Origin: Corynebacterium lizhenjunii | GTDB taxonomy: Bacteria > Actinomycetota > Actinomycetes > Mycobacteriales > Mycobacteriaceae | Length of the DNA stretch: 64,000 nucleotides | NCBI RefSeq assembly: GCF_011038655.2 | Contig: NZ_CP064954.1 | Coordinates: 310,001-374,000 of the forward strand | Reading direction: 5' to 3' | Shown: piece by piece, positions 15,539 to 63,555 of the stretch | Layout of the letters: each line of letters starts with the position of its first letter | How positions within the stretch are numbered: the first letter of the stretch is position 1 | Notes under the pieces: model-generated | Seen by the model: the letters and a program-made list of their open reading frames with translations, nothing else | Told to the model about the DNA's origin: nothing | Databases searched by the model: none | Program-made: the position numbers and the translations under genes

Positions 15539-16867
15539 ATGCCTACTTCCAGCTCCTCAGTTGATACGTCTATTACCACTCAATCGCAGCAGTGGTTCCA
15601 GCGCAGCGCGCGCTCCATCCCGGGCGGGGTGAACTCCCCGGTGCGTGCATATGGCTCGGTCGGCGGCCAGGCCCGCGTGATTGCTCGCGGCAAGGGTTCG
15701 CGCCTGTGGGACGTGGACGGCAATGAGTACGTGGACTTGGTCAGCTCCTATGGGCCGATGTTGCACGGCAACGCCCACCCGCAGATTGTGGAGGCAGTGC
15801 ACAAGGCCGTGGTGGATGGCTTGAGCTTCGGCGCGCCCACGGAGGCCGAGGCCCTGCTGGCGGAAGAGATTATTAAGCGCACGGCCGTGGAGAAGGTACG
15901 CATGGTCAACTCCGGCACGGAGGCCACCATGTCTGCGGTGCGCCTGGCGCGCGGGTTCACGGGCCGGCCGAAGGTGCTGAAGTTCGAGGGCTGCTACCAC
16001 GGGCACGTGGATGCGCTGTTGGCATCGGCAGGCTCGGGCGTGGCCACCTTTGGGCTGCCGGATTCCCCGGGGGTCACGGGCGCCACGGCGGCGGATACCA
16101 TTGTGGTGCCCTATAACGACCTGGAGGCGGTGCGCGCGGCGTTTGCCCAAAACCCGGGGGAGATTGCCTGCATTATTGCCGAGGCCGCGGCGGGCAACAT
16201 GGGCACAGTCGCCCCGCAGGAGGGCTTCAATGCTGCGCTGAAGGATATTGCGCACGCTGACGGTGCGCTGCTGATTTTGGATGAGGTCATGACGGGTTTC
16301 CGCACCTCCTACCAGGGTTGGTACGGCGTTGATGGCGTGGCGGGGGACCTGGTGACCTTCGGCAAGGTGATTTCCGGCGGGCTGCCGGCGGCGGCGTTTG
16401 GCGGCCGCGCGGACATCATGGATTACCTGGCCCCTGCCGGTCCCGTCTACCAGGCAGGCACCCTGTCTGGTAACCCCGTGGCCATGGCTTCGGGTTTGGC
16501 ATCCCTTCAGCTTGCCGATGCCCCCGTTTACTCCCGCTTGGCTGCCCATGCGGACCGTTTGTGCGATCTGATTTCGACCGCCTTGGCTGGGCAAGGCGTG
16601 GAACACCATATGCAGCGGGCGTCGTCGATGTTCTCGGTGCGCTTCGCGCCGGGGCCAGCGCATAATTTTGCCGATATGCAGGCGGGGGAGAACTTCCGCT
16701 TTGCGCCCTTCTTCCACGCGCTGCTAGACCATGGGGTGTACGTGGCGCCGTCTGCGTTTGAGACGTGGTTTGTCTCTGATGCGCTAACGGACGATGATTT
16801 TGAGGTAATCGAGCGCGCGTTGGTGCCGGCTGCTCAGGCTGCGGCTGCCGCGCGGAAGGAGTCTTAA
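15539..16867 (+). CDS. hemL: Glutamate-1-semialdehyde 2,1-aminomutase
   Basis: Second enzyme of the C5 pathway: converts glutamate-1-semialdehyde to 5-aminolevulinate with PLP. It has 442 residues. Signatures are [13 protein letters not shown] near the N-terminus, [26 protein letters not shown], and [17 protein letters not shown] with the PLP lysine. I placed the start at ATG 15539 because a TGGATACAAT extended -10 (15522-15531) would start a leaderless transcript there; ATGs at 15530 and 15521 are in the same frame. The frame is open back to 15227 only because it crosses the divergent lipoprotein gene. An exact copy of the interspersed word lies at 16509-16525 and encodes QLADAP. Confidence 0.95.
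16509..16525 (-). repeat. Interspersed word GGGGGCATCGGCAAGCT, exact copy (in hemL)
   Basis: Exact 17/17 match on the minus strand. The hemL coding strand reads LADAP through it, with the uncommon codon CTT for Leu. Confidence 0.9.
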
Positions 16868-16868
16868 T

Positions 16869-17477
16869 ATGTCTACGACCATCGTGCATTTGGTGCGCCA
16901 CGGTGAGGTACACAATCCGGAGAAGATTCTCTACGGGCGGATCCCGGGCTACCACTTGTCCTCCCGGGGCTTTTCACAGGCAGCGCGCACGGCGCGGTCG
17001 TTTGAGGGCCACGATGTGACCTACCTGGTGGCTTCTCCGCTGCAGCGCACGCAAGAGACCGCGGCGGAGATTGCGAAGGTTGTGGGCCTGGACGTGGACA
17101 CGGATAAGACCGTGATTGAGTCCGGCAACCGCTTTGAGGGGCTGCGGGTCAAGGGTCTGCGGTCCCAGCTGTGGAACCCCACCCGCTGGCCGCTGCTGCG
17201 CAATCCGCTGCAGCCTTCGTGGGGGGAGCCGTTTTCTACGGTGGCAGACCGCATGATGAATGCCGTGGAGCGCGCTCGCCTGGAGGCGGAGGGGCATGAG
17301 GCTATCGTGGTCTCCCACCAGCTGCCCATCGTGATGGTTCAGCGCACCGTGCTGGGCTTGCGCTTGGCGCACGCGCCGTGGAACCGGGAGTGTGACTTGG
17401 CGTCGGTGACGTCCTTGGTGTTCCAGGACGCGGAAATCACAGACATCTTCTACTCTTCGCCTGCACATGCTATCTAA
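16869..17477 (+). CDS. Histidine phosphatase family protein (phosphoglycerate mutase-like)
   Basis: A 202-residue protein of the branch-1 histidine phosphatase family. The catalytic LVRHGEVHNP (His near residue 11) is at the N-terminus and the second His lies in AIVVSHQLPIV. YGRIPGYHLSSRG and SPLQRTQETA are further family segments. The substrate is unknown. The same gene (Rv0525) sits between hemL and the cytochrome c maturation genes in mycobacteria. The ATG is one base after the hemL stop and the gene overlaps the next one by 11 nt, so it is part of one operon. Confidence 0.9.
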   Translation: MSTTIVHLVRHGEVHNPEKILYGRIPGYHLSSRGFSQAARTARSFEGHDVTYLVASPLQRTQETAAEIAKVVGLDVDTDKTVIESGNRFEGLRVKGLRSQLWNPTRWPLLRNPLQPSWGEPFSTVADRMMNAVERARLEAEGHEAIVVSHQLPIVMVQRTVLGLRLAHAPWNRECDLASVTSLVFQDAEITDIFYSSPAHAI

Positions 17478-22466: not shown

Positions 22467-22655
22467 TGCATATGGCGACCGGTACCAGGGGCGGCGTTGA
22501 GGGGTGGGGGCATCGGCAGGCTTAGGCTAGCGAGCGGGGCAACGGGGACGGCGGGATGAAGCTCATAGATGTGGTGCGTATGGTCCATCTTTTGGCCTGC
22601 GCAGCGTCCGACAAAAGTTTGAGTAGGCCCGAATGCGCGGGTAGGGTATCTATTC

Positions 22656-23573
22656 ATGGCTGTTGACCAGAACCTCTCCAATTTCTCGGACCTGACTTTC
22701 CGCACCGCACTGGTGGTCTACGTGGTGGCTCTGTTCATGTCGCTCTATTACTACGGGCGCATGCAAACTGTCATCGATGCCCGCCGTGCTGGCGAGGCGG
22801 ACCAAGCCGCCGAGGATTTCGCCCGCAAGTTGGGGGGAATGCTCCAGGGACTTATTTGGTTAGGCATCATCATCCACTTTGCAGCCATCGTGCTGCGCGG
22901 GTTGGCCGTGCACCGCTTCCCACTGGGCAACCTCTACGAGTACGTTCTCACGGTCACTGCCGGCGCCATGGCTGCAGCTGCCATCGCTTTTCAGCGCAAG
23001 GAATGGCGCACCCTGTGGCCGTGGCTGCTCACGCCAATCCTCCTGCTGATGTTCTACGGCGGCACCAAACTTTACGCCGAGTCCGCCCCGGTGGTACCCG
23101 CCCTGCAGTCCTATTGGCTGCCGGTGCACGTCACCGTGGTTTCGCTGGGCGCGTCCATCGGCCTGCTCTCCGGCTTGCTGTCGATCCTGTACCTGATTCG
23201 CCGGGCTAACCCGCGGGGTGAGGAAAGTGGTATCGGCGGGCTGATAGCCAAGCCCCTGCCCACGGCGAAGAAACTAGACCAGCTGGCTTACCGCACGGCA
23301 ATCATTACCCTGCCTACGCTGGGTCTGGGTATTGTCCTGGGCGCAATCTGGGCCGAAGCCGCCTGGGGCCGGCCGTGGGGTTGGGACCCGAAGGAGACTG
23401 TCTCATTTGCCACCTGGATCCTCTACGCCGCCTACTTGCACGCGCGTTACACCACGTCTTGGCGCAAGGCGGCCCCGTGGATCAATGTTTTGGCTATGGC
23501 TACCATGATTTTCAACCTCTTCTTTATTAACCAAGTGGTCTCCGGCCTGCACTCCTACGCCGGCCTGAACTAG
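22656..23573 (+). CDS. ccsA: CcsA/ResC cytochrome c biogenesis protein (haem handling)
   Basis: A 305-residue membrane protein of the haem-handling family with about eight helices. The tryptophan-rich WWD signature is WAEAAWGRPWGWDPKET (about residue 232-248). Conserved His residues occur in LRGLAVHRFPLGNLYE, in LPVHVTV and in the last helices. With CcsB it attaches haem to apocytochrome c outside the membrane. A TAGGGT -10 box ends 8 nt before the ATG, so it is probably transcribed as a leaderless mRNA of its own. This makes sense since it is cut off from ccsB. Confidence 0.95.
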   Translation: MAVDQNLSNFSDLTFRTALVVYVVALFMSLYYYGRMQTVIDARRAGEADQAAEDFARKLGGMLQGLIWLGIIIHFAAIVLRGLAVHRFPLGNLYEYVLTVTAGAMAAAAIAFQRKEWRTLWPWLLTPILLLMFYGGTKLYAESAPVVPALQSYWLPVHVTVVSLGASIGLLSGLLSILYLIRRANPRGEESGIGGLIAKPLPTAKKLDQLAYRTAIITLPTLGLGIVLGAIWAEAAWGRPWGWDPKETVSFATWILYAAYLHARYTTSWRKAAPWINVLAMATMIFNLFFINQVVSGLHSYAGLN

Positions 23574-26215: not shown

Positions 26216-27088
26216 CTAGGCCTGCTGCAGTTGCCTAGTCTGCCGATTCCCCCTCTGCCGCACCCCTTTCCCACCGGCCGGGGTGGTGCCGCGGTTGCGC
26301 CAGCGGTAGAGGATGAGGAGGGTGAGGAATATGGTGGCATCGGCAAGCACTATGCCCGCGGCGCTGGCCACGCGTAGGTGGTAGGCCACCCAGAACCCCG
26401 CCAGGGCCCCGGCGGCGCCAAAGAAGGCGGCCCACACCCACATGTGCAGCACGTGGCGGGAGACCAGGCGGGCGGTCAGCGGGGGCAGGACCATGAGGGC
26501 GATGACCAGCATGGTGCCCGCGGTGTGGAAAGCGGTGGTGGTGGTCAGGGCAACCAGGGCCAAAAAGCCCCACTGCCAGACGCCATGGGCGTGGCCGTTG
26601 AAGGCGGCGGCGGACAGGCGCGGCAGCCATAGGCCCAGCACCACGGCGTTGAGCACGGCCACCCCGCCCATGATCCAGATGTAGTCCGGGTCAGACAGGG
26701 CCACCAGGTTCAGATCGCCCACCAGGACCACGTGGACATCGAGGGGGGAGTGCGTCAGCACGGTGGAAATGAGCACCACGCCTATGGCAAAGAGCGTGGG
26801 GAAGATGATGCCCAGTGCGGCATCTTTGGGCAGATGGCGCTGTAGGGCGTAGGTGGCCCACGCCACCAGGATGCTGGCGGTGGCGGCGGTGACTGTGAGC
26901 CAGGGGGAGTGTAGGTCGCCCGCGGCCAGGTAGCCCAGCACAATTCCGGGCAGGACGGCGTGGCCCATGCCGTCGATGAGCATGGCCTCCCCACGCAGCA
27001 CCAGGAAGGTGCCGGGGAGGGCGCAGGCCACCGCGGTGCAAATGGCCAGCAGGCAGGCGCACGCGGCCAGGCTTAACGAGCTAAACAT
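26216..27088 (-). CDS. mntD: Manganese/zinc ABC transporter permease, second subunit
   Basis: A 290-residue ABC-3 family permease with about eight helices and the family hallmark [16 protein letters not shown] near the N-terminus. The start at ATG 27088 overlaps the first permease gene by 16 nt. It is the last gene of a four-gene operon on the minus strand with binding protein, ATPase and two permeases; a two-permease layout is typical of corynebacterial MntABCD. Metal choice is inferred from the MntR box upstream of the operon. VLADAT near the C-terminus is encoded by a partial interspersed word (26336-26348). Confidence 0.85.
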
Positions 27089-29665: not shown

Positions 29666-30328
29666 ATGCACCTCAATGACTTGCCTGAACGCAGCCAGGA
29701 ATACCTCAAGGCCTTGTGGGACCTGGTGGAACATCATGGTGAGACGGTGACGGTCAAGGACCTGGTGGCGCGCACGGGGCAGAAGCCGCCGACGGCATCG
29801 GAAGCCATCAAGCGCCTGGCGGCCCAAGGTTTGGTGGAGCATGAGCGCTACGCGGGGGTGTCGCTGACGGCTGCCGGCCGCGAGCTGGCGATGGAGATTG
29901 TGCGCCGGCATCGCCTGCTGGAGACCTTCTTGGTCACCAACCTGGGCTATAGCTGGGATGAGGTGCATGAGGACGCCGATATTTTGGAGCATGCCTGTTC
30001 TGATCGCTTTATCGATCGGCTCGACGCCCTGCTGGGCCACCCGGATCGCGATCCGCACGGCGATCCCATCCCGGATGCTCACGGTCGTATCGCGGACCTG
30101 GGCACAGATACGCTTGCCGATGCCCCCGTGGGCCAGCCCCTAACCCTGCTGCGGGTGTGCGACACGAACTCCGATCTGCTGCGCTACCTGGGCCAACACG
30201 GTGTGCAGCCTGGCGATGAGCTCACCATCCGCGCCGATGTCGCCGGCTTGCTGGAGATTGATGTGCGCGGCGATGTCATTTCCCTGGCCAAGGCGGCTGC
30301 TCACGACGTGACTGTCGCGCCGGCTTAG
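29666..30328 (+). CDS. mntR: DtxR family manganese-dependent regulator (MntR)
   Basis: A 220-residue DtxR-family repressor: winged helix (residues 1-70), dimerisation and metal domain (about 72-140), and a C-terminal SH3-like FeoA domain (about 145-220). Against the DtxR sequence, the position of metal ligand Met10 is Glu here and Cys102 is Asp (ADILEH instead of ACRWEH). Carboxylates at these places are typical of Mn-selective MntR. It is divergent from mntABCD and the palindrome between them is the likely target. A TACACT box lies 7 nt before the ATG (leaderless). A 16/17 copy of the interspersed word lies at 30112-30127 and encodes LADAP. Confidence 0.88.
   Translation: MHLNDLPERSQEYLKALWDLVEHHGETVTVKDLVARTGQKPPTASEAIKRLAAQGLVEHERYAGVSLTAAGRELAMEIVRRHRLLETFLVTNLGYSWDEVHEDADILEHACSDRFIDRLDALLGHPDRDPHGDPIPDAHGRIADLGTDTLADAPVGQPLTLLRVCDTNSDLLRYLGQHGVQPGDELTIRADVAGLLEIDVRGDVISLAKAAAHDVTVAPA
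30112..30127 (-). repeat. Interspersed word, 16/17 copy (in mntR)
   Basis: GCTTGCCGATGCCCCC on the plus strand, lacking only the terminal A of the consensus. Encodes LADAP in the gene frame. Confidence 0.88.
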
Positions 30329-36797: not shown

Positions 36798-38519
36798 ATG
36801 GCTGCACAGACTGAACCGACCTCAGCAGAGTCCAACCCGGCAGATTCCAACCCGGCAGAGTCCACCCCAGCAGAGTCCAACCCAGCAGATTCCACGCAGG
36901 CACTGGAGCTGGCCCAGGCCGTGGCCGCGCAGGTGGCCCGCCACTGCACGGACGTGGTCATCTGCCCCGGATCGCGCAACGCGCCGCTGAACTTGGCGTT
37001 GCTGGCGCGCGCAGACTTGCGGGTACACACCCGTTTGGATGAGCGCTCTGCGGCCTTCCTGGCATTGGGCATCGCACGGGTGCAGCGCCGCCACGTGGCG
37101 GTGGTAATGACCTCCGGCACCGCGGTGGCCAATGCCCTGCCCGCTGTGGTGGAGTCCCACCACAGCCATACCCCGCTGTTGGTGCTCTCAGCTGACCGCC
37201 CGGCCCGGCTAGTGGGAACTGGGGCCTCGCAGACCATCCAGCAGCAGGGAATTTTTGGCACGTTTGCAGATACGCTGCAGGTGGCGCAGGTGGGGGAGGT
37301 CGGCGGCATCGGCAAGCTACTGAGCCACCAGCGCACCGCCCACGTTAATGTGGCGCTGGATGCCCCGCTGGTGCCAGCCGACCTGCCGTCGGTGCCCACG
37401 GAGCGCACGCTGCGGCGCGCGCCGGGCCCGGCCTGGAGTGACCACGGGACGGTGGATGTGGACCTGAGCCGCAACACCCTGGTGGTGGCGGGCGATGAAG
37501 CCTGGGAAGTGCCGGGCTTGGAGGACGTGCCCACAATTGCTGAGCCCACCGCGCCCGCACCGTATCACCCCGTGCACCCGGCTGCGGCCAGTTTCTTCCG
37601 CCAGGACCAGGTCAGTGCAAACAATTACGTGGTCAATACCCGCGTGGAGCAGGTGATTGTGGTGGGCCATCCCACGCTGCACCGCGAGGTGTTGGCGCTG
37701 CTGGCGGACCCGGATGTGGACCTTATCTGCCTGTCGCGCACCCCGGAGTTTACAAATCCCCGCGGCCAGCACGCCCGCCTGGGCACCACCGTGCGCACTA
37801 CGGGAGCGCCCAGCAAGGACTGGCTGAAGGTCTGCGCCGGTGCTGCCCAGATGGCGGGCGAGGCCGTTCGGGAGGTCTTGGAGGATCCGCGCTTCGGCTT
37901 TAGCGGTTTGCACGCCGCCGCGGCGGTGGCGGACACGCTGGCGGTCGAGGATGCCCTGGTGCTCGGCGCCTCTAACCCGGTGCGCGACGCCTCCCTGGTG
38001 GGCCTGCCCTTTGACGGGGTGTCCGTGTATTCCCCGCGCGGTGCCGCTGGCATTGATGGCACCGTTGCACAAGCCATCGGCGTGGCTTTGGCCACCCAGC
38101 ATGAGCTTGCCGATGCCCCCCGTGCCCCCCGCACCGTAGCCCTCATGGGGGATGTCACCTTCATCCACGACGCGACGGCGCTGGCTATTGGCCCGCACAG
38201 CCCCCGGCCGGAGAACCTGACCTTGGTGGTGGCCAATGACAACGGCGGCGGGATTTTTGAAACTCTAGAGGTGGGCGCGCCCGGACTGCGGGAGCCTTTT
38301 GAGCGCGGTTTTGGCACCCCGCACGATGTGGACATAGAGCAGCTCGTTGGTGCGTTTGGGGTGGACTACCGCCGGGTAGAAAGCGCCCAGGAGTTGTTGG
38401 ACGTGCTCGCGGAGCTCAAGGAATACTCGGTGGGCATGGTGGTTGTAGATGCCCGCACGACCCGGACTACCCGCCGCGAGCTGCACCAGCAGCTGCGGGA
38501 GCGCACCAGTGTCCGCTAG
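36798..38519 (+). CDS. menD: 2-succinyl-5-enolpyruvyl-6-hydroxy-3-cyclohexene-1-carboxylate synthase
   Basis: A ThDP-dependent enzyme of 573 residues that starts the classical menaquinone pathway from isochorismate and 2-oxoglutarate. Signatures are [16 protein letters not shown] with the following Glu-containing [11 protein letters not shown], and the ThDP/Mg motif GDVTFIHD ... [12 protein letters not shown]. Residues 1-35 are a Ser-Asn-Pro-Ala-Asp/Glu repeat. A TAGGCT box 8 nt before the ATG gives a leaderless start. An exact interspersed word (38104-38120) encodes ELADAP in a loop before RTVALMGD; a 14-nt copy in the other orientation (37305-37318) encodes GIGKL. Confidence 0.95.
36831..36890 (+). 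repeat. 15-bp tandem repeat, four units, at the N-terminus of menD
   Basis: Units of TCCAACCCGGCAGA(T/G) encoding [15 protein letters not shown] and SNPAD. Confidence 0.92.
38104..38120 (-). repeat. Interspersed word, exact copy (in menD)
   Basis: Exact 17/17 match; encodes LADAP with a CTT leucine codon. Confidence 0.9.
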
Positions 38520-43553: not shown

Positions 43554-43691
43554 GGGTCAGCGCGCCCTGCATCAACGCGCACCGCATCACCGCATCACCG
43601 CGTCACTGCGCACCGCGCCCCGACCTGTCCTGCGCCACTGCTGCGCCCTGCGCACCGCGCCCTGGGTTGTCGAGGGGTTGGGTGCTGGAGT

Positions 43692-43707
43692 GGGGCATCG
43701 GCAAGCT
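43692..43707 (+). repeat. Interspersed word, 16/17 copy (between tRNA genes)
   Basis: GGGGCATCGGCAAGCT preceded by T instead of G, in non-coding DNA. Confidence 0.88.
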
Positions 43708-44809: not shown

Positions 44810-45745
44810 ATGAGTGAAGAAAACACCCAGCCGGATCCCTTCGACGTCAACGAAGTGAACGTATCCTCCTTCGAGGACGACTTGGCGCAGGCGCAGAGCC
44901 AGACGGCGGAGTCCGCAGCTGCTGCCGAGGCCGCCGAAGCTCGCGCCGCCGCCGGCGTTGCTGCAGCGGCAGACAGTCCGGCACCGGCCAATGAGACCAT
45001 CAACACGGACCTGAACACGGAGATTCCGGAGGGGGCATCGGCGGAGTTGACCCAGGCCGTGGAGGCCGTCGCCGCTCCGGAAGGGGAGGAAGCCGACAGC
45101 GAGTATAAGGCCCGCCTGCGCCAGTTCACCCGTGAACTGAAGAAGCAACCCGGCCAGTGGTACATCATCCAGTGCTACTCCGGCTACGAAAACAAGGTCA
45201 AAACCAACCTGGATATGCGCGCCCAGACCCTGGAGGTGGAGGATTCCATCTTCGACGTGGTGGTGCCCATCGAGCAGGTACTGGAGAACAAGGACGGCAA
45301 GAAGAAGCTGGTCAAGCGCAAGCTGCTGCCGGGTTATGTGCTGGTCCGCATGGAGCTTAACGATGCCGCCTGGTCCGTCGTCCGCGACACCCCCGGCGTG
45401 ACCTCGTTTGTGGGCAACGAAGGCAATGCCACCCCCGTTAAGCACCGCGACGTGGCAAAGTTCCTGTTGCCACAGTCCTCGCCGGTCAAGGCAGGCGAGG
45501 CAGCGGCCAACGAGGCAGAGGGCGAGCAGGTTATCGCCATGCCGGAGCAGCAGGCCGCATCCAAGGTTACCCATGATTATCAGGTGGGCGAGGCCGTGAC
45601 CATCCTGTCTGGTCCGCTGGCGTCTGTCTCCGCTACGATTTCTGAGATCGACCCGGAGACCGGCAAGATGCAAGGCCTGGTGTCCATCTTTGGCCGCGAG
45701 ACCCCGGTGGAGTTGACCGCGAGCGAGATTGAGCGCGTGAACTAG
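44810..45745 (+). CDS. nusG: Transcription termination/antitermination protein NusG
   Basis: A 311-residue NusG. The first 110 residues are acidic, Ala-rich and probably disordered, as in other actinobacteria. The NGN domain starts at GQWYIIQCYSGYENKVKTNL, and the KOW domain (VGEAVTILSGPLASVSATI) is at the C-terminus. It binds RNA polymerase and Rho or NusE. The ATG follows AGGAGCAAAC. A degenerate copy of the interspersed word encodes EGASAE (45031-45044). Confidence 0.95.
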   Translation: MSEENTQPDPFDVNEVNVSSFEDDLAQAQSQTAESAAAAEAAEARAAAGVAAAADSPAPANETINTDLNTEIPEGASAELTQAVEAVAAPEGEEADSEYKARLRQFTRELKKQPGQWYIIQCYSGYENKVKTNLDMRAQTLEVEDSIFDVVVPIEQVLENKDGKKKLVKRKLLPGYVLVRMELNDAAWSVVRDTPGVTSFVGNEGNATPVKHRDVAKFLLPQSSPVKAGEAAANEAEGEQVIAMPEQQAASKVTHDYQVGEAVTILSGPLASVSATISEIDPETGKMQGLVSIFGRETPVELTASEIERVN

Positions 45746-45746
45746 C

Positions 45747-45762
45747 GGGGCATCGGCAAGCT
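45747..45762 (+). repeat. Interspersed word, 16/17 copy (just after nusG)
   Basis: GGGGCATCGGCAAGCT, preceded by C, begins 1 nt after the nusG stop. It continues as AAGCTTGG, so that CAAGCT-A-AGCTTG forms a palindrome at the end of the word. Confidence 0.9.
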
Positions 45763-47256: not shown

Positions 47257-47273
47257 AGCTTGCCGATGCCCCC
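47257..47273 (-). repeat. Interspersed word, exact copy (after rplA, part of the terminator)
   Basis: Exact 17/17 match on the minus strand, starting 4 nt after the rplA stop. Its CCCCC end forms the 5' arm of the terminator stem. Confidence 0.92.
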
Positions 47274-48959: not shown

Positions 48960-49388
48960 ATGGATTCAGCACAGATTGTCAAGCAATACGCCGTCGACGT
49001 TGAACGCGTGGGCCTGAAGCACTACCGCGCGACCTCGCCCAGCGGGGCGCAGGTGGACTACGGACAGGGGGAGGGGCTGCTTACTCCCGTGGAGTTGCTG
49101 CTTGCTGGCGTCGCGGGGTGTGCGGCGGTGGACGTGGATGTGGTGACTGCGCGCCGCAGCGAGCCGGAGCGCTTCAATGTCCACGTGGAGGGCGACCGCG
49201 TCAATGAGGACGGCGCCTCGCGCCTGTCTGCTGTGCGCGTGAGCTTCGACGTCCAGTTCCCAGATACCCCGGAGGGCCGCCAAGCCCAGAGCATGCTGGG
49301 CCGGCTCATTGAAGTTAGCCACGACAAGGACTGCACGGCTTCCCGCACGGTGGAGCACCCCACCGAGGTCACCTTCGATCACAAATAA
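48960..49388 (+). CDS. OsmC family peroxiredoxin-like protein
   Basis: A 142-residue OsmC-family protein, which reduces organic hydroperoxides through two cysteines. The first Cys is in LAGVAGCAAVDVDVV and the second in DKDCTASRTVEHPT, in the expected order. The ATG lies 6 nt after TAGAGT (leaderless). The last 10 bp overlap the convergent ArsA-like gene. Confidence 0.88.
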   Translation: MDSAQIVKQYAVDVERVGLKHYRATSPSGAQVDYGQGEGLLTPVELLLAGVAGCAAVDVDVVTARRSEPERFNVHVEGDRVNEDGASRLSAVRVSFDVQFPDTPEGRQAQSMLGRLIEVSHDKDCTASRTVEHPTEVTFDHK

Positions 49389-50311
49389 GCGGCGATTTCC
49401 GCGATAGCTTCCGGCGAGCCGGCATCGTGGGGCAGCCACGGCACATTCCACATCGCTAGCCCGGGCAGGCGCTCGCGCAGCAAAGCTATCGCCTCTTCCT
49501 CCGCGGCGCGCCGCCCGCTCAAAAAGGCGTCCGCCCCCTCCGGGACGCGTCGGTTAAGAAAAATCCCGCCCACATGCACGCCGCTGGCGCTTAACTGTCC
49601 GTGAAACTCGACGGACTCCAGCACAGGTAGGCGCTCTGCGGTGGCTACCAGGTAAAACGTGGTGCGCTGCGGGTTGCTCAGCTCGTTGCGCAGCAACTCG
49701 AAGCGCCGCCGCCGTTGCAGCAGCGTGGCCCTAATTTTGCGGTTGCGTTCCTCTACCGGGTCCGGCCCGGACAGGCCGCGCAGCGCAGCACCAAACTTGT
49801 CTGCCTTTTCCCGCCGCGCTAGCAAGCCGTCGGTGTAGGCAGCCATGATTTCCGGCAGTGCCATCAACCTCGCAGTGTGCCCCGACGGTGCGGTGTCAAA
49901 CACGATGTGCGCATAGTTTGCCTGTTCCCCCAGCACCTGCGCCATCCGCTCCAGCAGCGCCGCCTCATGCGTGCCTGGGGACTGGCGAGCTAGCTCAATG
50001 TGCTTGTGCACCTCCCCGCGCAGGTGCCGGGGCATCAGGTCTTCCATAGAGCGCCGCACCCGCGCCAAGTGCTCTTCTGTGGTTCGGGCGGGATCTAATT
50101 CCATCAGGGACAGGTGCGGGCGGACGGGGGTGGGGGCATCGGCAAGCTCAGTGCCCCATACGTGACCCAAATTGTGGGCAGGATCTGTAGACACCAGCAA
50201 GGTCTCCCGCCCGGCGGCTGCCAGGGCGAAGGCGGTAGCGTTGGCCAGGGTGGTCTTGCCCACGCCGCCCTTGCCGCCGAAGAACACGATGGGAGTGGGG
50301 TTTAGCAGCAT
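49379..50311 (-). CDS. ArsA/Get3 family ATPase
   Basis: A P-loop ATPase of 310 residues. It has the deviant Walker A GGKGGVGKTT, STDPAHNLGHVWG (switch I), and FDTAPSGHTARLMALPE (switch II), all diagnostic for the ArsA/Get3 group. No arsenic genes are nearby. It overlaps by 10 nt the gene for a short protein ending in Cys-Cys, itself overlapping cstA, so the three are one unit. I infer a role in handling or assembling membrane proteins or the CC-tail protein, not arsenite export. An exact interspersed word (50142-50158) encodes ELADAP. Confidence 0.87.
   Translation of the reverse strand: MLLNPTPIVFFGGKGGVGKTTLANATAFALAAAGRETLLVSTDPAHNLGHVWGTELADAPTPVRPHLSLMELDPARTTEEHLARVRRSMEDLMPRHLRGEVHKHIELARQSPGTHEAALLERMAQVLGEQANYAHIVFDTAPSGHTARLMALPEIMAAYTDGLLARREKADKFGAALRGLSGPDPVEERNRKIRATLLQRRRRFELLRNELSNPQRTTFYLVATAERLPVLESVEFHGQLSASGVHVGGIFLNRRVPEGADAFLSGRRAAEEEAIALLRERLPGLAMWNVPWLPHDAGSPEAIAEIAAYL
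50142..50158 (+). repeat. Interspersed word, exact copy (in the ArsA-like gene)
   Basis: Exact 17/17 match on the plus strand; the minus-strand gene reads LADAP. Confidence 0.92.
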
Positions 50312-52267: not shown

Positions 52268-52471
52268 GAGGCTCCTGCCAAGGGTCGGGGGCGGTCAATG
52301 CGATGTGACGCGCCACCTGAATATACGGGTGCGGCGCATCACAGTGCGCCAAATTATGCCACGGGCATAGATTTTTGGGAAGTGGATCCCACGGTGGGGG
52401 TGCTGTCCGCGCGCCTGTGCCGCGGGCGCCGGGTGTTTATTTGGCCACGTTATCGGCTATTCTGTTACACC

Positions 52472-54142
52472 GTGAGCGAGCACAAGATTACTGAAGCACA
52501 AGACGTCCCCGAGCAGCTGCGTATTCGCCGCGAAAAGCGCGCGCGCCTGCTGGCCAATGGCACGCAGGCCTACCCCGTGAGCGTTGCGCGCACCTTATCG
52601 CTGGCGCAGTTGCGCGCTCAGTACGTGGTGCTTGCCGATGCCCCCTCCGCCGACGCCCAGCCTGCCGATGCCGCTGCTCCCGCCCAGCCTGCCGATGCTG
52701 GCGCAGATTCCAGCGCCGCCGCAGGCGCGTCCGATTCCGCAGACGCCTCTGAGCCTGACGTGACGCACCTGCGAGCTGGCGAGGAGACCCAGGACGTGGT
52801 CTCGATTGCCGGGCGGCTTATCTTCATGCGCAACACCGGCAAGCTGTGCTTTGCCACGCTGCAAGATGGCGATGGCACGCAGGTTCAGGCCATGCTGTCC
52901 CTGGCGGAGGTTGGCGAGGAAGCCCTGGCAGCCTGGAAGGCCGACGTGGACTTGGGTGATTTCATCTCGGTGACTGGGCGGGTCATTGCCTCGCGCCGCG
53001 GGGAGCTGTCGGTAATGGCTAGCTCGTGGGCTATGGCGTCGAAGGCGCTGCGCCCGCTGCCAGTGTCTTTCGCGGAGATGAACGAGGAAACCCGCGTGCG
53101 CCAACGCTATAACGATCTGATTGTGCGTGAAGATGCCCGCAAGAACGCAATGACCCGCATCCAGGTTATTCGCGCCCTGCGCCGCCACTTGGAGGACCAG
53201 GGCTTTAATGAGATTGAAACCCCCATGCTGCAGACGCTGCACGGCGGCGCGGCAGCCCGGCCCTTTGTCACGCACTCTAATGCACTAGATATTGACCTGT
53301 ACTTGCGCATTGCGCCGGAACTATTCTTGAAGCGCGCGGTAGTGGGCGGCATCGACAAGGTCTTTGAGATTAACCGCAACTTCCGCAACGAGGGTATCGA
53401 CAAATCGCACTCGCCGGAATTTGCCATGCTGGAGATTTACGATGCCTGGGGCGACTACACCACCATCGCCCGGACCATCCGCGAGGCCATCCAGGCTGTG
53501 GCACTGTCCGTCTTTGGTTCACACGTGGTCACGCTTGCCGATGGCACCGAGTACGACCTCGGCGGGGAGTCCTGGCCGGAAATTGAGATGTACCCTTCGC
53601 TCAACGAGGCTCTGGCGCGGAAGGTCCCCGGCCAGCCGGAAGTCACCATTGATTCGACGGTGGATGAGCTCAAGGCCTTGGCCAAGGTCATCGGCTTGGA
53701 CGTGCCCAAGGACGGCGGCTGGGGTCATGGCAAGCTGGTGGAAGAAATCTGGGAGCTGCTGTGTGAAGACCAGCTAGAGGGGCCCATCTTTGTGAAGAAT
53801 TTCCCCGTAGAGACCTCCCCGCTGACCCGGGATCACCGCGAGCTGCCGGGCGTGACGGAGAAGTGGGACCTCTACGTCCGCGGCTTTGAGCTGGCTACCG
53901 GGTACTCGGAGCTGGTGGACCCGGTGATCCAGCGCGAGCGCTTCGAGGACCAAGCGCGCCTTGCCGCCGGCGGCGATGATGAAGCAATGGTGCTTGACGA
54001 GGAATTCCTCGCCGCCATGGAACAGGGCATGCCGCCTACTGGTGGCGCTGGCATGGGCATCGACCGCCTGCTCATGGCGTTGACCGGCCTGGGCATCCGG
54101 GAGACGGTGCTCTTCCCGATCGTCAAGCCAGACGCCCGCTAA
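52472..54142 (+). CDS. lysS: Lysyl-tRNA synthetase (class II) with low-complexity insertion
   Basis: A class II LysRS of 556 residues, about 40 longer than usual. Motif 2 is [19 protein letters not shown] and motif 3 [15 protein letters not shown]; the OB-fold anticodon domain is at the N-terminus ([17 protein letters not shown]). Between [10 protein letters not shown] and the OB-fold lies an Ala/Asp/Pro-rich insertion of about 50 residues with QPADA units. It begins with a 16/17 copy of the interspersed word (52630-52645). The GTG at 52472 lies 8 nt after TATTCT (leaderless). The upstream open frame crosses the cstA gene and is not used. Confidence 0.95.
52630..52645 (-). repeat. Interspersed word, 16/17 copy (in lysS insertion)
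   Basis: GCTTGCCGATGCCCCC on the plus strand, encoding LADAP; two decayed relatives (CCTGCCGATGC) follow at 52661-52671 and 52688-52698. Confidence 0.88.
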
Positions 54143-57688: not shown

Positions 57689-58041
57689 GGTTTTGACGCT
57701 AAGGCGATTGTGCAACCCTGCGCAAGGGGAATTTTGGAAAAACCCGAAATCTGTGGATAACTCGGCGAAAATGTGCACTCTATTAGACAATTGTCGAAGA
57801 ATTCCACAGGGAGAATGCCACAGACGTGACATAATCTAGCCCCGCACGAGCAAACGGGGTGCTGACGCAGCCCGGGCCGGCAATAAGACATCGGCGCGCG
57901 CACGCGAGGAGGGGCTGCGTGTCGAATCATAGGAAGCAAGAGCGGAGCGTGGCGCAGGTCGGACCGAGGAGCGCGCACGCGGGGAGGGGGGCGCGAACTG
58001 CGTTGCGCGGCGCGCGGGCGGACCGCGGCGGGTGAGGGAAA

Positions 58042-58057
58042 GGGGCATCGGCAAGCT
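58042..58057 (+). repeat. Interspersed word, 16/17 copy (upstream of clpC)
   Basis: GGGGCATCGGCAAGCT preceded by A, 4 nt before the ClgR-like site. Confidence 0.88.
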
Positions 58058-58199: not shown

Positions 58200-60899
58200 A
58201 TGTTTGAGAGGTTTACGGACCGTGCTCGCCGCGTCATCGTGCTGGCGCAGGAGGAAGCACGCATGCTCAACCACAACTACATCGGCACCGAGCACATTTT
58301 GCTCGGGCTCATTCACGAAGGTGAAGGTGTGGCCGCCAAGGCGCTAGAGGCGATGGGGATTTCCCTAGAGGACGTGCGCCGCGAGGTGGAGGAGATTATT
58401 GGCCAAGGCACGCAGCCTCCCACCGGGCACATCCCGTTTACCCCGCGCGCTAAGAAAGTGCTGGAGCTGTCCTTGCGGGAAGGCCTGCAGATGGGACATA
58501 AGTACATCGGCACGGAGTTCCTGTTGCTGGGTCTCATCCGTGAAGGCGACGGCGTGGCCGCACAGGTGCTGACCAAGCTGGGCGCGGACCTGCCGCGCGT
58601 GCGCCAGCAAGTTATTCAGCTGCTGTCGGGTTATGAAGGCAACCAGAATGAAGGCGAAGCGGGCGCCCAGGGTCGGCCGGTGGGCGCCGGGGCTGGTCAG
58701 GGTGGTGGACGCACTGCACCCAACGGTGGCGGGGAACGCTCCAACTCGCTGGTACTCGACCAATTTGGCCGCAACCTTACCCAGGCCGCTAAGGAAGGCA
58801 AGCTCGACCCCGTGGTGGGGCGCGAGTCTGAGGTAGAGCGCATTATGCAGGTGCTCTCGCGGCGCACCAAGAATAACCCAGTGCTTATCGGTGAGCCAGG
58901 CGTGGGTAAGACCGCGGTTGTGGAGGGCCTGGCCCTGGACATCGTCAACGGCAAGGTCCCGGAGACCCTAAAGGACAAGCAACTGTACTCCCTGGATTTG
59001 GGTTCGCTGATTGCTGGGTCGCGTTACCGTGGCGACTTTGAAGAGCGCCTGAAGAAGGTGCTCAAAGAGATTAACCAGCGCGGTGACATCATCTTGTTTA
59101 TCGACGAGATCCACACCCTAGTTGGCGCTGGTGCCGCAGAAGGCGCTATTGACGCCGCCTCGCTGCTCAAGCCCAAACTGGCCCGCGGTGAGCTGCAGAC
59201 CATTGGTGCCACCACGCTGGATGAGTACCGCAAGCACATCGAAAAAGATGCCGCCCTAGAGCGCCGTTTCCAGCCGGTGAAGGTGGAAGAGCCCTCACTG
59301 GATGACACCATCTTGATCCTCAAGGGCCTGCGCGATAAGTACGAGGCCCACCACCGCGTGTCTTACACGGATGAGGCGCTCAAGGCGGCAGCGTCGCTGT
59401 CGGACCGCTACATCAATGACCGCTTCCTGCCGGATAAGGCCGTGGACCTGCTGGATGAGGCCGGTGCCCGCATGCGCATCAAGCGCATGACCGCCCCAGA
59501 AGGCCTGCGGGAGGTCGACGAGCGTATTGCGGAAGTCCGCCGCGCCAAGGAAGCCGCCATCGACGAGCAGGACTTTGAAAAGGCGGCCGGCCTGCGCGAC
59601 CAGGAGCGCAAGCTCTTCGAGGAGCGCTCGGAGAAGGAAGAACAGTGGCGCTCCGGTGAGCTGGAGGACATCGCAGAGGTCGGCGAGGAACAAATCGCCG
59701 AGGTCCTGGCCCACTGGACCGGCATCCCGGTGCTGAAGCTGACGGAGAAGGAATCCTCCCGTCTGCTGCACATGGAAGACGAGTTGCACAAGCGAATCAT
59801 CGGTCAGGACGAGGCCGTCAAGGCGGTTTCGCGCGCTATTCGCCGCACCCGCGCGGGCCTGAAGGACCCGCGCCGCCCATCCGGTTCCTTCATCTTCGCC
59901 GGCCCGTCCGGTGTGGGTAAGACGGAGCTGTCGAAGTCCCTGGCAAACTTCCTGTTCGGTTCGGATGATGACCTCATCCAGATCGACATGGGCGAGTTCC
60001 ATGATCGTTTCACGGCCTCGCGCCTATTCGGTGCCCCTCCGGGGTACGTGGGCTACGAGGAGGGCGGCCAGCTGACGGAGAAGGTCCGCCGCAAGCCGTT
60101 CTCCGTGGTGCTCTTCGATGAGATCGAAAAGGCCCACAAAGAGATCTACAACACCTTGCTGCAGGTGCTCGAAGATGGCCGCCTGACCGATGGTCAGGGC
60201 CGCGTGGTGGACTTCAAGAACACCGTGTTGATCTTCACCTCCAACCTGGGAACGCAGGACATCTCCAAGGCGGTGGGCTTGGGCTTTAGCGGTTCTTCCG
60301 CAACTGACTCGGATGCGCAGTATTCACGCATGAAGAACAAGGTCCACGACGAGCTGAAGAAGCATTTCCGCCCGGAGTTCCTCAACCGTATTGATGAGAT
60401 TGTGGTCTTCCACCAGCTGACTCAGGAGCAGATTGTGCAGATGGTGGAGCTGCTCATTGGCCGTGTGGAGAAGCAGTTGGCGGAGCGCGATATGGGCATC
60501 GAGCTGACGCCGCTGGCTAAGGATCTGCTGGCTAAGCGGGGCTTTGACCCGGTCCTGGGTGCGCGTCCGCTGCGCCGCACCATTCAGCGCGAGATTGAGG
60601 ATCAGCTCTCGGAGAAGATCCTCTTCGGCGAACTCGGTGCAGGCGACCTGGTCACTGTTGACGTGGAGGGTTGGGACGGCGAGGCTGCGGATTATTCTGC
60701 TGCGCGCTTTACCTTCACCCCTTCGCCGAAGCCGCTGCCGGAGGGCACCTTCACGGAGGACGACGCTGAGGTCCGCGAGACCGAAGAGGTTGCTGAGTCT
60801 GCCGATGCCCTGGTTCCCGACGCCCTGCCCGAGTCCCCCGCCCCGGCTGAGGGCGGGGATGACACCCCACCGCCGGCAGGCGCTACGCAGCCTGCCTAA
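58200..60899 (+). CDS. clpC: ATP-dependent Clp protease ATP-binding subunit ClpC
   Basis: An 899-residue AAA+ unfoldase partner of ClpP. Order: N-domain ([20 protein letters not shown], two repeats to about 145), Gly-rich linker, AAA-1 with Walker A GEPGVGKT and Walker B ILFIDEIH, a middle domain (about 420-480), AAA-2 with Walker [10 protein letters not shown] and Walker [10 protein letters not shown], and an acidic C-tail ([14 protein letters not shown]). RBS AGAGG. Probably under ClgR control. Confidence 0.97.
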
Positions 60900-61039: not shown

Positions 61040-62416
61040 TTAGCCGTTGATGCAGTTGCTGGGGGCGGGGCGGTTGTGAAAACGGTCCGCGAGGTAGATC
61101 AAGCCTTTGGGCAGGGTGGTCATTAGCGGTAGAGCATGGCCGGTGCCCCAGCCAAGGCCGGGGCCGTTTTCGATGACGAAGTCTACTGTGCCGCCTTGCT
61201 GGCAATAGGCGCCAGCGAGTTGTTGGGCTTGGGCGAAGGGAATGAGGTCATCGTGAGGGGAGTGGGCGATGTAGATGGGCGCGCTCACGGGGCGTCGGCC
61301 AAGCTGTTGTTCGTCGAGGACGCGGGCGATCTCGGGGATGCGGTGGGAGAGTTCGGCAAAAGATTCACCGGTGCGGGTCAGTTGGCGCGAGTTGACTCCG
61401 CCCCAGTTGAGCACGGATTCGGGAATGCAGGAGTTGGCGGCGCTGCGGACGAACTCGTGCCCGCGTTCGTTGAAGTTATCCATGATGAGCTGCAGGAAGC
61501 GCGGGTCGCGTTCGCCGAAGCCATTGATGGCGTATCCCAGAACGTGGGCGATGGGCGAACCGTCGACAGCGACCATAACCTGGGAGAGGTCAGCGGGCGG
61601 GGCGCCAGCGAAGGTGCCTTTGATGTTGAGCTCGGGGGCGTATTCGGCAACCCGCTCGGCGGCGGAGGCGGCAGCACCGCCACCCTGGGAGTAGCCGGCA
61701 AAGCCGATGGGGGCATCGGCAGGGGCGCCGGTGAGAGTCAAGGCGGCACGGGCGGCATCGATAAGGGCGTAGGCCTGCTCGGCGGCGTGCACGTAGGTGT
61801 GGTGGCCGGGGGTGCCCAGGCCGATGTAGTCCGGCACAATGACGCGAATGCCAAACGCGGCTGCCGCCTGTTGGAATTGGTACTCGTAGTTGACATTGAG
61901 TGACCCTGGTGTTGCGCTGGCTAGCCCCAAGTAAGCGCGGGAGGGGGCGCATTGGTCGCCTTGGCCGCGGGTGCCGGGGGCTAGCACAATGGTGGGCCGC
62001 GGGCCCGGCCCAGCCCAAGGCGCCGTTGGTTCAAAGAGCGTGGCGGTGGCGGTCGTCCGCGAACCATCGGCGCGCGTGGTGGGGTAGTGCACCAGTTGCG
62101 CGCGGGAGTTGAATTCGAGAGCATGCGGTATGGCCGTGGCTGTAGGCGCCTCCGGTACCGGTGCGCTGATGGTACTTGGAGCTTCGCCGGGTTCGGCAGC
62201 TGCAACGGGCGCGGGGGTAAGCGCCCACAATCCCGCCGCTGCCACTGCCGTTAGCGTTGCCGCTGCCACCGCGGATCTTGCTGCCGCTACCGTGGCTCGC
62301 ACCGCTGCGATGGCTTTTGCCGCCGATGCCGCCGATGCCGCTAATGTTGCCGCTGGTGCTACTGGTGCTACTGCTGCCGTTGGTGGTTTTACTGGTGAGA
62401 GTTGAAACATAGGCAT
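61040..62416 (-). CDS. Secreted lipase (LIP family triacylglycerol lipase)
   Basis: A 458-residue alpha/beta hydrolase of the secretory lipase (PF03583) type. The nucleophile elbow is GFAGYSQGGGAA; the Asp is probably in IAHSPHDDLIPF and the His in GWGTGHALPL. The first 75 residues are an unusually long Ala-rich leader with a hydrophobic core ending AVAAAGLWALTPAPVAAAEP, a probable signal-peptidase site. An interspersed word fragment (61709-61721) encodes PADAP. Start ATG 62416 or 62410. Confidence 0.85.
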   Translation of the reverse strand: MPMFQLSPVKPPTAAVAPVAPAATLAASAASAAKAIAAVRATVAAARSAVAAATLTAVAAAGLWALTPAPVAAAEPGEAPSTISAPVPEAPTATAIPHALEFNSRAQLVHYPTTRADGSRTTATATLFEPTAPWAGPGPRPTIVLAPGTRGQGDQCAPSRAYLGLASATPGSLNVNYEYQFQQAAAAFGIRVIVPDYIGLGTPGHHTYVHAAEQAYALIDAARAALTLTGAPADAPIGFAGYSQGGGAAASAAERVAEYAPELNIKGTFAGAPPADLSQVMVAVDGSPIAHVLGYAINGFGERDPRFLQLIMDNFNERGHEFVRSAANSCIPESVLNWGGVNSRQLTRTGESFAELSHRIPEIARVLDEQQLGRRPVSAPIYIAHSPHDDLIPFAQAQQLAGAYCQQGGTVDFVIENGPGLGWGTGHALPLMTTLPKGLIYLADRFHNRPAPSNCING

Positions 62417-62440
62417 AGCGTAGACGCTATGATTCCCCTC

Positions 62441-62611
62441 ATGGGCATTTATTATCGCTCCCGCAAGAAGGTGGGAAAGAACAGCTGGTTGAACTTCTCT
62501 AAGTCAGGAGCTTCGGCGTCGACGAAGATCGGGCCGGTGACGCTGAACTCGCGCGGAGGGGTGTGGGTCAAACTCCCTGGCGGCCTGAACCTGCGTGGCC
62601 GCTGGCGCTAA
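62441..62611 (+). CDS. DUF4236 small protein
   Basis: A 56-residue protein beginning MGIYYRSRKKVGKNSWLNFS, followed by KSGASASTKIGPVTLNSRGG; the N-terminal pattern is that of DUF4236. Function unknown. The ATG at 62441 lies 7 nt after TATGAT (leaderless). Divergent from the lipase. Confidence 0.75.
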   Translation: MGIYYRSRKKVGKNSWLNFSKSGASASTKIGPVTLNSRGGVWVKLPGGLNLRGRWR

Positions 62612-62679
62612 CCAGGCGCTAGCTCTATTCGGACGCTGGCGCTAACCGACCAGCAGCACGCCAACCGGAGTGAGCATGC

Positions 62680-63555
62680 TTAAGCCGGCAGGTGAAAGCG
62701 CTGCTGGGCGTCTTGTTCGGCGAGGCCATCGGCAAGCAGGGAGGCCAACGCACGGGAGCGCTGCGCAGCATCCGGCCACACGACATCGATGGCGCTGCGG
62801 GACACGGGGGTATCGGCACGCCGGAGCACGTCCATGATGAGGCCGCGCACCTGTCGGTCAGTGCCGGTGAACTTCTGCACCCGCATCTTTGCCGCAGCCA
62901 GCTCGTGGCTAGCAGGCTCCGGGCAGCCGGCTAGCTGCCAGGCGCACGTGTCCAGCAAGGGACAGCGCTGGCATTGCGGCGAGCGCGCGGTGCACACTAG
63001 GGCTCCCAGTTCCATCACTGCCACGGAATATAGTGGGCCGTCTTTGGCTGGCAGCAGCTCGGCGGCACGGACAAGCTCGCGTGCTCGCGGCGGTGGCGCC
63101 AGAAAGTCGCCGTCTAGGGCGCGGGCATAGACACGGCGCACGTTGGTATCAACCACCGGCACGTTGCGCCCGTAGTGGAAGCACGCCACCGCGGCGGCGG
63201 TGTACTGGCCGATGCCGGGCAGGGCCTGGAGCTCTTCGATGGTGGAGGGGATGGGGGCATCGGCAAGCTGTTGGGCGCATTCCCATAGCCGCAGGGCGCG
63301 GCGCGGGTAGCCCAGCTTGCCCCAGGCACGCAAGACTTCCGCTTTGCTGGCGGTGGCGAAGTCCGCGGGGGTGGGCCAGCGCTGCATCCATTCCTCCCAC
63401 ACCGGGGCCACCCGCGCGACGGGGGTTTGCTGGCTCATGACTTCGCTAACCAAGACTCCCCACGCGGTTGTTCCGGGCCGCCGCCAAGGCAAGTCGCGGC
63501 GCGCACCGCGGAACCACTCCACAATTTTTTGTGTGTCAATTGCCTGCGTATCCAT
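62680..63555 (-). CDS. mutY: A/G-specific adenine DNA glycosylase
   Basis: Removes adenine mispaired with 8-oxoguanine. The 291-residue protein has the helix-hairpin-helix LPGIGQYTAAAV, catalytic Asp in VPVVDTNVRRV, Glu in SEVMSQQTPVARV, and a [4Fe-4S] cluster pattern CTARSPQCQRCPLLDTC. The usual Nudix-like C-terminal domain is absent; only a short wing-like tail follows. That short form is common in actinobacteria. The ATG at 63555 lies 7 nt after TAAGCT (leaderless), divergent from the carbonic anhydrase. An exact interspersed word (63253-63269) encodes QLADAP. Confidence 0.95.
   Translation of the reverse strand: MDTQAIDTQKIVEWFRGARRDLPWRRPGTTAWGVLVSEVMSQQTPVARVAPVWEEWMQRWPTPADFATASKAEVLRAWGKLGYPRRALRLWECAQQLADAPIPSTIEELQALPGIGQYTAAAVACFHYGRNVPVVDTNVRRVYARALDGDFLAPPPRARELVRAAELLPAKDGPLYSVAVMELGALVCTARSPQCQRCPLLDTCAWQLAGCPEPASHELAAAKMRVQKFTGTDRQVRGLIMDVLRRADTPVSRSAIDVVWPDAAQRSRALASLLADGLAEQDAQQRFHLPA
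63253..63269 (+). repeat. Interspersed word, exact copy (in mutY)
   Basis: Exact 17/17 match; mutY on the minus strand reads LADAP through it. Confidence 0.92.

What the first reader, a model, noticed from the sequence alone, without database searches (positions are those of the whole stretch)
16509..63269. An interspersed 17-bp DNA word, GGGGGCATCGGCAAGCT, repeated across the window
Exact copies at 16509, 38104, 47257, 50142 and 63253; 16/17 copies at 30112, 43692, 45747, 52630 and 58042. One-mismatch or shorter copies include 11315, 12537, 14555, 15172, 16021, 22506, 26336, 29401, 37305, 61709. A given 16-mer is expected far less than once in 64 kb. Copies occur on both strands, four of the ten best between genes. 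The six genic ones all encode Leu-Ala-Asp-Ala-Pro, with the same codons each time including CTT, an unusual Leu codon here, so the constraint is at DNA level. Density (about one per 6 kb strict, about one per 3 kb relaxed), tolerance of decay and placement in loops resemble DNA uptake sequences of Neisseria and Pasteurellaceae. No such word is known to me in actinobacteria. Alternatives are a nucleoid, repair or restriction-avoidance signal.
Basis: partly seen in the sequence, partly recalled or inferred. Interest (0 to 1): 0.88.

Follow-up and report, generated by a model that had tools for sequence, protein, structure and literature searches.

The report
Corynebacterium genomes' repeated DNA word
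A short DNA word scattered hundreds of times through this Corynebacterium genome turns out to be a widespread signal of the genus, with species dialects and absent from the phage and mobile DNA sampled; it looks most like a tag by which cells recognise and take up their own kind's DNA, something not known to me in Gram-positive bacteria.

Summary
In detail: 5 exact copies of the 17-mer and 36 with up to 3 mismatches in the window (0.80 expected); 239 copies of its 14-base core in the genome, 119/120 by strand, reversed control 0. It is a discrete DNA word under DNA-level constraint: 75 genic copies against 4.4 expected from the same proteins and codon usage. It shows no replication polarity (172/186).

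It is one dialect of a genus-wide word, GGCRTCGNNAAGC. Of 242 Corynebacterium genomes, 157 carry at least 100 copies of the G form, 17 of the A form, none both; 57 have under 30 of each. Sampled class members outside the genus show no comparable excess. C. glutamicum ATCC 13032 (identity partly recalled) has 426 copies; four phages and 120 kb of its mobile DNA have none (25.9 and 15.4 expected).

Best reading: a DNA uptake sequence, probably read by the Tad pilus/ComEA/ComEC machinery. Uptake is untested, the receptor unknown, and presence of the machinery does not track the word.

The parts
16509..16525 (-). exact 17-mer, inside an aminotransferase class-III gene (15530-16867 +), antisense, QLADAPV
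22506..22522 (+). 1-mismatch copy, intergenic, upstream of a cytochrome c assembly gene (22656-23573 +)
30111..30127 (-). 1-mismatch copy, inside an iron-dependent-repressor family gene (29666-30328 +), antisense, TLADAPV
37302..37318 (+). 1-mismatch copy, inside a TPP-enzyme gene (36798-38519 +), sense, GGIGKLL
38104..38120 (-). exact 17-mer, same TPP-enzyme gene, antisense, ELADAPR
43691..43707 (+). 1-mismatch copy, intergenic, between tRNA-Tyr and tRNA-Thr
45746..45762 (+). 1-mismatch copy, intergenic, directly after a NusG-family gene (44810-45745 +)
47257..47273 (-). exact 17-mer, intergenic, directly after the ribosomal protein L1 gene (46548-47252 +)
50132..50148 (+). exact 17-mer, inside an ArsA-type ATPase gene (49379-50311 -), antisense, ELADAPT
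52629..52645 (-). 1-mismatch copy, inside a class II (D/K/N) tRNA synthetase gene (52382-54142 +), antisense, VLADAPS
58041..58057 (+). 1-mismatch copy, intergenic, upstream of a Clp-ATPase gene (58200-60899 +)
63253..63269 (+). exact 17-mer, inside an HhH-GPD DNA-repair glycosylase gene (62680-63438 -), antisense, QLADAPI
11314..11330 (-). 2-mismatch copy, genic antisense, LLADTPG
12534..12550 (+). 2-mismatch copy, genic antisense, HLADASA
26333..26349 (+). 2-mismatch copy, genic antisense, VLADATI

Best explanation
The word is a DNA uptake sequence (DUS). Proposed mechanism: a surface component of the competence machinery, probably a pilin-like subunit of the Tad (Flp) pilus or a protein beside it, binds double-stranded DNA carrying GGCRTCGNNAAGC. 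The pilus pulls that DNA through the mycolate layer and cell wall to ComEA, ComEC passes one strand into the cell, and recombination swaps it into the chromosome. Word-bearing alleles are taken up more often, so biased uptake plus recombination spreads and keeps the word wherever the encoded protein tolerates it. Phage and plasmid-like DNA lacks it and is discriminated against, and a change in the receptor lets a lineage drift to a new dialect. Shown here: copy number, strand symmetry, DNA-level constraint, dialects and their mutual exclusion, absence from the phage and mobile DNA sampled, and presence of the machinery genes. Inferred: binding, preferred uptake, the identity of the receptor, and maintenance by biased uptake.
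For: Copy number far above chance and equal on both strands (the 157 genomes with >=100 G-form copies total 29,675 forward and 29,657 reverse). No replichore polarity in samples of nine species, 172 against 186. Synonymous codons fixed: observed/expected 75/4.4, 47/2.1, 27/2.3, 25/1.8, 26/1.1 and 29/1.1 in six species, reversed controls at background. First among spaced words (6 bases, 2 free, 4 bases) in two further species. Two mutually exclusive dialects, the A form clustered on a tree. No comparable excess outside the genus in the class samples. No copy in four phages and in 120 kb of a mobile region of C. glutamicum, where 25.9 and 15.4 are expected. ComEA, ComEC and a Tad locus in this genome; ComEC over its cut-off in 241 of 242 and TadA over its cut-off in 232 of 242 genomes of the genus. 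In the actinobacterium Micrococcus luteus tad genes are needed for transformation, and that paper reports that tad plus comEA/comEC is frequent in the actinobacterial lineage (PMC4322843, passages read). DUS dialects of Neisseriaceae are barriers to transformation between species (PMC3630211, abstract and outline).
Against: No uptake or transformation was tested, and no listed paper reports natural transformation or an uptake sequence in Corynebacterium. Presence of the machinery does not discriminate: TadA is found in 26 of 26 word-poor genomes tried (25 over the cut-off), and ComEC in all word-poor ones. The one genome without a ComEC match, G577 (90% complete draft), carries 144 copies. No charge signature of the minor pilins separates word-bearing from word-less species. 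Copies are fewer than the thousands reported for Neisseria. Absence from phages would also be expected of a Chi-like host signal.
Confidence: 0.7

Rival explanations
1. Chi-like recombination or repair signal: a helicase-nuclease (RecBCD/AddAB/AdnAB type) recognises the word and switches from degradation to recombination; host DNA carries it, phage DNA does not.
For: Copy density (13-mer about one per 5 kb in G000 and one per 8 kb in C. glutamicum), placement within and between genes, and absence from phages would fit.
Against: No polarity with replication in samples of nine species (172 against 186), whereas well-studied Chi sites are oriented with replication (recalled). Eleven specified bases is long for Chi (5-8 bases, recalled). 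Two point-exchange dialects inside one genus, and near absence in 57 of 242 genomes, are unexpected for a repair signal. The nuclease genes were not looked for.
Confidence: 0.1
2. Binding site of a chromosome-organising or nucleoid-associated protein, or of a DNA methyltransferase, that needs hundreds of scattered sites.
For: Spread over the sampled chromosome, both strands, bipartite core with two free bases.
Against: Non-palindromic, so not a typical homodimer site; no clustering at origin or terminus evident in the samples; mutually exclusive dialects and near absence in many species. A methylation or restriction target would not by itself drive enrichment at the cost of rare codons. No candidate protein was sought.
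Confidence: 0.12
3. Not a DNA signal: a conserved protein motif or codon-usage side effect.
For: In G000 57 of 75 genic copies share one frame (L-x-D-A) on the strand opposite to the word; the share is 53-85% in the eight species.
Against: Genic copies exceed the protein-and-codon expectation 12- to 27-fold in six species; in G000 57 of 111 peptides able to carry the word in the L-x-D-A frame do carry it, against 0.80 expected. Intergenic copies, other frames and unrelated genes; between co-directional genes that orientation is not preferred (29 along, 17 against transcription over six species, summed). The frame bias is explained by which peptides can be encoded.
Confidence: 0.01
4. Remnant of a mobile element or a transcription-terminator or attenuator unit.
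For: Dispersed repeat with a few close pairs (3 within 80 bases in 504 kb).
Against: No conserved flank beyond the 17 bases apart from codon periodicity; most copies lie inside genes (86 of 123 at <=2 mismatches); synonymous codons are fixed.
Confidence: 0.03

Closest known systems
DNA uptake sequence (DUS) of Neisseriaceae, with dialects (PMC3630211, abstract and outline seen)
   Same: Short non-palindromic word in very many copies, dialects differing at a few bases and following phylogeny, competence genes present, copies in genes and between genes.
   Different: Unrelated sequence; two free central bases here; fewer copies (136-578 of the A-form 13-mer in 17 genomes, 100-976 of the G form in 157); Actinomycetota with a Tad (type IVc) pilus, and only one T2SSE-family ATPase in this genome; few close pairs; uptake not demonstrated.
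Uptake signal sequence (USS) of Pasteurellaceae
   Same: Hundreds of copies of a roughly 9-base core with flanking preference and preferred reading frames in genes (recalled).
   Different: Different sequence, phylum and pilus type; no AT-rich flank found.
Chi sites
   Same: Host-genome signal at similar density, missing from phage DNA (recalled for Chi; for the word).
   Different: No replication polarity; longer; dialect exchange within a genus.
Micrococcus luteus Tad/Flp-pilus natural transformation (PMC4322843, passages read)
   Same: Actinobacterial tad locus plus comEA/comEC.
   Different: The text has no hit for 'uptake sequence', 'DUS', 'sequence specific' or 'Corynebacterium'.

Membership tests
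DNA uptake sequence (DUS/USS) | short word in hundreds of copies, far above chance | tested here: met
DNA uptake sequence (DUS/USS) | both strands equally, no replication polarity | tested here: met
DNA uptake sequence (DUS/USS) | selection on DNA, not protein; genic and intergenic copies | tested here: met
DNA uptake sequence (DUS/USS) | related species share the word or a dialect of it | tested here: met
DNA uptake sequence (DUS/USS) | rare in phage and other foreign DNA | tested here: met
   13-mer 0 copies in four phages (201,274 bp; two copies of the shorter 12-mer) and 0 in 120 kb of mobile region; C. glutamicum only
DNA uptake sequence (DUS/USS) | genes for pilus-driven DNA uptake and ComEC transport | tested here: met
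   but their presence does not separate word-bearing from word-poor species
DNA uptake sequence (DUS/USS) | specific receptor for the word | tested here: inconclusive
   TadE and TadE-like similarity differs between groups but with exceptions both ways; no charge pattern
DNA uptake sequence (DUS/USS) | DNA with the word is taken up or transforms better | not testable with these tools
   needs an experiment
Chi site | orientation bias with replication | tested here: not met
   172 against 186 in samples of nine species
FtsK/SpoIIIE-orienting or terminus-binding site | polarity or clustering around the terminus | tested here: not met
   (samples, not whole genomes)
conserved protein motif | all copies explained by the peptide and normal codon usage | tested here: not met

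The most novel reading that the evidence does not exclude
Corynebacterium as a genus runs a sequence-gated system of natural transformation: a DNA uptake sequence with two main dialects (GCGTCG and GCATCG, both followed by NNAAGC), read by a Tad-pilus-based uptake machine. It would be the first uptake sequence in Gram-positive bacteria, would mean that C. glutamicum is naturally transformable under conditions not yet found, and would include lineages that lost the word.
Probability: 0.62. Interest if true: 0.96.

Novelty: new variant of a known kind. Interest (0 to 1): 0.92.

Why it matters
Uptake sequences are known, to my knowledge (recalled), only from Neisseriaceae and Pasteurellaceae. One spread through a genus of Actinomycetota would be an independent origin of sequence-selective transformation, tied to a different pilus type. 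It makes a clear prediction for C. glutamicum, an industrial strain that I do not know to be naturally transformable: DNA bearing the word should enter and recombine better. It would change how gene flow, species barriers and phage exclusion are read across a large genus of commensals, industrial strains and pathogens.

Tried and rejected
Ideas rejected: part of a longer repeat or mobile element (flanks carry no information beyond codon periodicity); one protein motif; Chi- or KOPS-type polarity; terminator pairs (3 close pairs in 504 kb).

Machinery as discriminator: a ComEC match in 241 of 242 genomes; TadA match in 239 of 242, of which 232 over the family cut-off; in 26 chosen word-poor genomes TadA in 26, 25 over the cut-off. 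So presence gives no receptor. In a chosen set of 20 word-bearing and 20 word-less genomes, G000's TadE finds no tblastn match at E <= 1e-2 in 1 and 13, and the TadE-like protein in 0 and 11. Word-less G523 and G599 have conserved tad loci and word-bearing C. lactis (G484) a diverged one, so this looks like lineage divergence, but it is not settled. Pilin charge gave nothing. De novo scans of four word-less species (100 kb each) listed no word of comparable excess.

could not search L067 (not held). My notebook entry after says that class genomes outside the genus all lie at or below the control; that was wrong. By eye several exceed it, at most about 3.3-fold where counts are 10 or more (G146: 50 against 15), and the largest count is 141 (G266, control 107), against 562 versus 16 in G000. 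An earlier entry gives about 45 species with neither form; the recount gives 57. In one search A-form counts below about 30 were not typed and were taken as under 30 by eye.

Not done: structure prediction, the search for homologous proteins, viral-contig scans, a search for the resident recombination nuclease.
Full report
WHAT IS THERE. The 17-mer GGGGGCATCGGCAAGCT occurs exactly at 16509, 38104, 47257, 50132 and 63253 in the window. There are 12 copies at <=1 mismatch and 36 at <=3, against 0.80 expected from dinucleotide shuffles. The window lies at 310001-374000 of a single-contig 2,607,882-base genome, in which GGCATCGGCAAGCT occurs 119 + 120 times and its reversed form never. In 464 kb (window plus twenty 20-kb stretches) the word dominates the over-represented k-mers: GCATCGGCAAGC occurs 75 times against 0.94 under a 5th-order Markov model. 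A position matrix gives G G S G G C A T C G G C A A/G G C T, with flanks uninformative apart from codon periodicity. There are 116 copies at <=2 mismatches in those 464 kb, against 3 in one simulated sequence of equal length.

WHICH ORGANISM. The genus group held 242 genomes of 1.6-3.8 Mb. One of them, G399, has the same match coordinates as the record named Corynebacterium amycolatum SK46, and G484 shares a listed coordinate with C. lactis, so the genus is Corynebacterium. G458 has a contig of 3,309,401 bases, the length I recall for C. glutamicum ATCC 13032, and its aspartokinase is identical over 421 residues to PDB 3aaw (that 3aaw is the C. glutamicum enzyme is recalled).

DNA-LEVEL CONSTRAINT. 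With a simple gene caller of my own on 504 kb of this genome, 123 copies at <=2 mismatches fall 86 in genes, 33 between genes and 4 at edges, where 19% of the sequence is called intergenic. Of the genic copies 64 of 86 lie on the strand opposite to the gene in one frame (reading L-A-D-A-P in full copies), and 12, 8 and 2 in the three sense frames. Holding each protein and the codon usage fixed, the core GCATCGNNAAGC should occur 4.4 times in the genes and occurs 75 times; in the L-x-D-A frame it occurs 57 times against 0.80, among 111 peptides able to carry it. Five other species give 47/2.1, 27/2.3, 25/1.8, 26/1.1 and 29/1.1; reversed-word controls are 0-2 against 0.1-1.4. Between co-directional genes the orientation is 29 along and 17 against transcription (summed over six species), so the antisense preference belongs to the coding constraint, not to RNA. 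Genes carrying the best window copies are unrelated: class-III aminotransferase, TPP enzyme, ArsA-type ATPase, HhH-GPD glycosylase, iron-dependent repressor, tRNA synthetase.

NO POLARITY. GC skew is positive in the samples up to 1.15 Mb and negative from 1.26 Mb on, close to zero in the last. Taking the G-rich strand of each sample as leading, 172 copies lie on it and 186 on the other, pooled over nine species; single species range from 8/19 to 17/13 (the window itself was not in that count).

GENUS-WIDE WORD WITH DIALECTS. The exact 14-mer is above 30 copies only in G000 (239) and G520 (108) of 242 genomes, but relatives carry variants with a shared core. Genus-wide counts of GGCATCGNNAAGC and GGCGTCGNNAAGC, tallied: 17 of 242 genomes have >=100 A-form copies (136-578), 157 of 242 have >=100 G-form copies (median 393, largest 976), none has both, 57 have fewer than 30 of each, and the remaining 11 are intermediate. 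The 17 A-form genomes hold 1-41 G-form copies. Strand totals over the 157 G-form genomes are 29,675 and 29,657. Reversed-word controls are 0-14 per genome by eye. A scan of spaced words (6 bases, 2 free, 4 bases) puts GCGTCGNNAAGC first in G616 (58 against 0.92 in 200 kb) and in G626 (65 against 1.6), and lists nothing of comparable excess in four word-less species. On a TadA-plus-helicase tree of 41 chosen species (20 word-bearing, 20 word-less, G000) the A-form species sit in one clade with two G-form species nested in it; thirteen word-less species form another clade, the other seven lie elsewhere, and C. lactis (414 G-form copies) stands apart beside one of them. This fits an old word with dialect change and loss, but it is a two-gene, midpoint-rooted tree whose support values I did not read.

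OUTSIDE THE GENUS. In a class sample of 355 genomes GCRTCGNNAAGC reaches 562 (control 16) in G000. Elsewhere the largest count is 141 (control 107), and by eye no genome with 10 or more copies exceeds its control more than about 3.3-fold. The exact 14-mer is at 0-4 in the other 393 class genomes, by eye.

FOREIGN DNA LACKS IT. In C. glutamicum (426 copies of the 13-mer, 213 + 213) the comparison was with phages phi673, phi674 and P1201 (host given as C. glutamicum) and BFK20 (host given as Brevibacterium flavum). Together (201,274 bases) they have 0 copies of the 13-mer where chromosomal density predicts 25.9, and two of the shorter 12-mer GCGTCGNNAAGC. Positions 1,810,001-1,930,000 of G458 have 0 of either where 15.4 of the 13-mer are expected. 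I chose that stretch because I recalled prophage CGP3 there; its proteins include a MobL relaxase, a conjugative coupling domain and phage-type ATPases and helicase (five of the ten proteins scanned against PHROGs had no match). BFK20, phi673 and phi674 are relatives of one another, and G+C is 0.49-0.56 in the phages and 0.45-0.52 in the region, so the nominal probabilities overstate the evidence.

MACHINERY. This genome encodes ComEA (SLBB plus helix-hairpin-helix), a 419-residue ComEC, and a locus with an Ssd/CpaE homologue, TadA, two T2SSF proteins in the TadB and TadC places, a Flp-type pilin (DUF4244), TadE (39.8 bits, cut-off 40) and an Rv3654c-type TadE-like protein. Only one T2SSE ATPase was found, so Tad is the only such pilus motor seen. 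ComEC is found in 241 of 242 genomes; TadA matches in 239, with 232 over the cut-off. [quoted passage not shown] Machinery presence therefore permits, but does not single out, word-bearing species: TadA is also in 26 of 26 word-poor genomes tried (25 over the cut-off). TadE-type genes are more diverged in word-less species (no tblastn match for TadE in 13 of 20 against 1 of 20), with exceptions both ways.

MECHANISM AND RIVALS. The pattern (non-palindromic word, hundreds of copies, strand symmetry, DNA-level selection within what the protein allows, exclusive dialects, absence from phages) matches uptake sequences best. A Chi-like signal shares the density and the absence from phages but should be polar. 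A nucleoid or methylation site does not explain dialect exclusion and rare-codon cost well, but no candidate protein was sought. Binding, preferential uptake and drive are inferred. The receptor is unknown.

PRINT. Ten searches of the held open-access library list no paper whose title or abstract start reports an uptake sequence or natural transformation in Corynebacterium; two of them listed only 20 of 338 and 20 of 42 papers. PMC5217627, a survey of spaced motifs, mentions Corynebacterium only for CRISPR-related pairs in three species in the passages seen. Subscription papers and preprints are not in that library.

Noticed in passing
G000 sample, 464 kb: A second over-represented word around CTAATGGTCAAAAT, 8-10 copies, unrelated to the first; possibly a small repeat element.
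   Followed up: no
L131-L140 (G616): About 30 copies of a word around GGTCGGCTCAGTGGTCGG in 200 kb, perhaps a clustered (CRISPR-like) repeat array.
   Followed up: no
G082 (same family): The reversed 14-mer, used as control, occurs 9 + 8 times there while the word itself occurs once: some other repeat of that genome.
   Followed up: no
G519 and G421: G519 has 23 A-form copies, and 10 of the full 14-mer; G421 has 40 A-form and 7 G-form copies: possible fading or young dialects.
   Followed up: no
L012, 12358 and 12376: Two word copies head to tail 18 bases apart between genes.
   Followed up: no
tad loci of word-poor species: Many word-poor species have clearly weaker TadA, TadE and TadE-like similarity; phylogeny may explain it, but a change in pilus function is possible.
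   Followed up: partly
G577: 144 A-form copies but no ComEC match, in a draft genome 90% complete.
   Followed up: no
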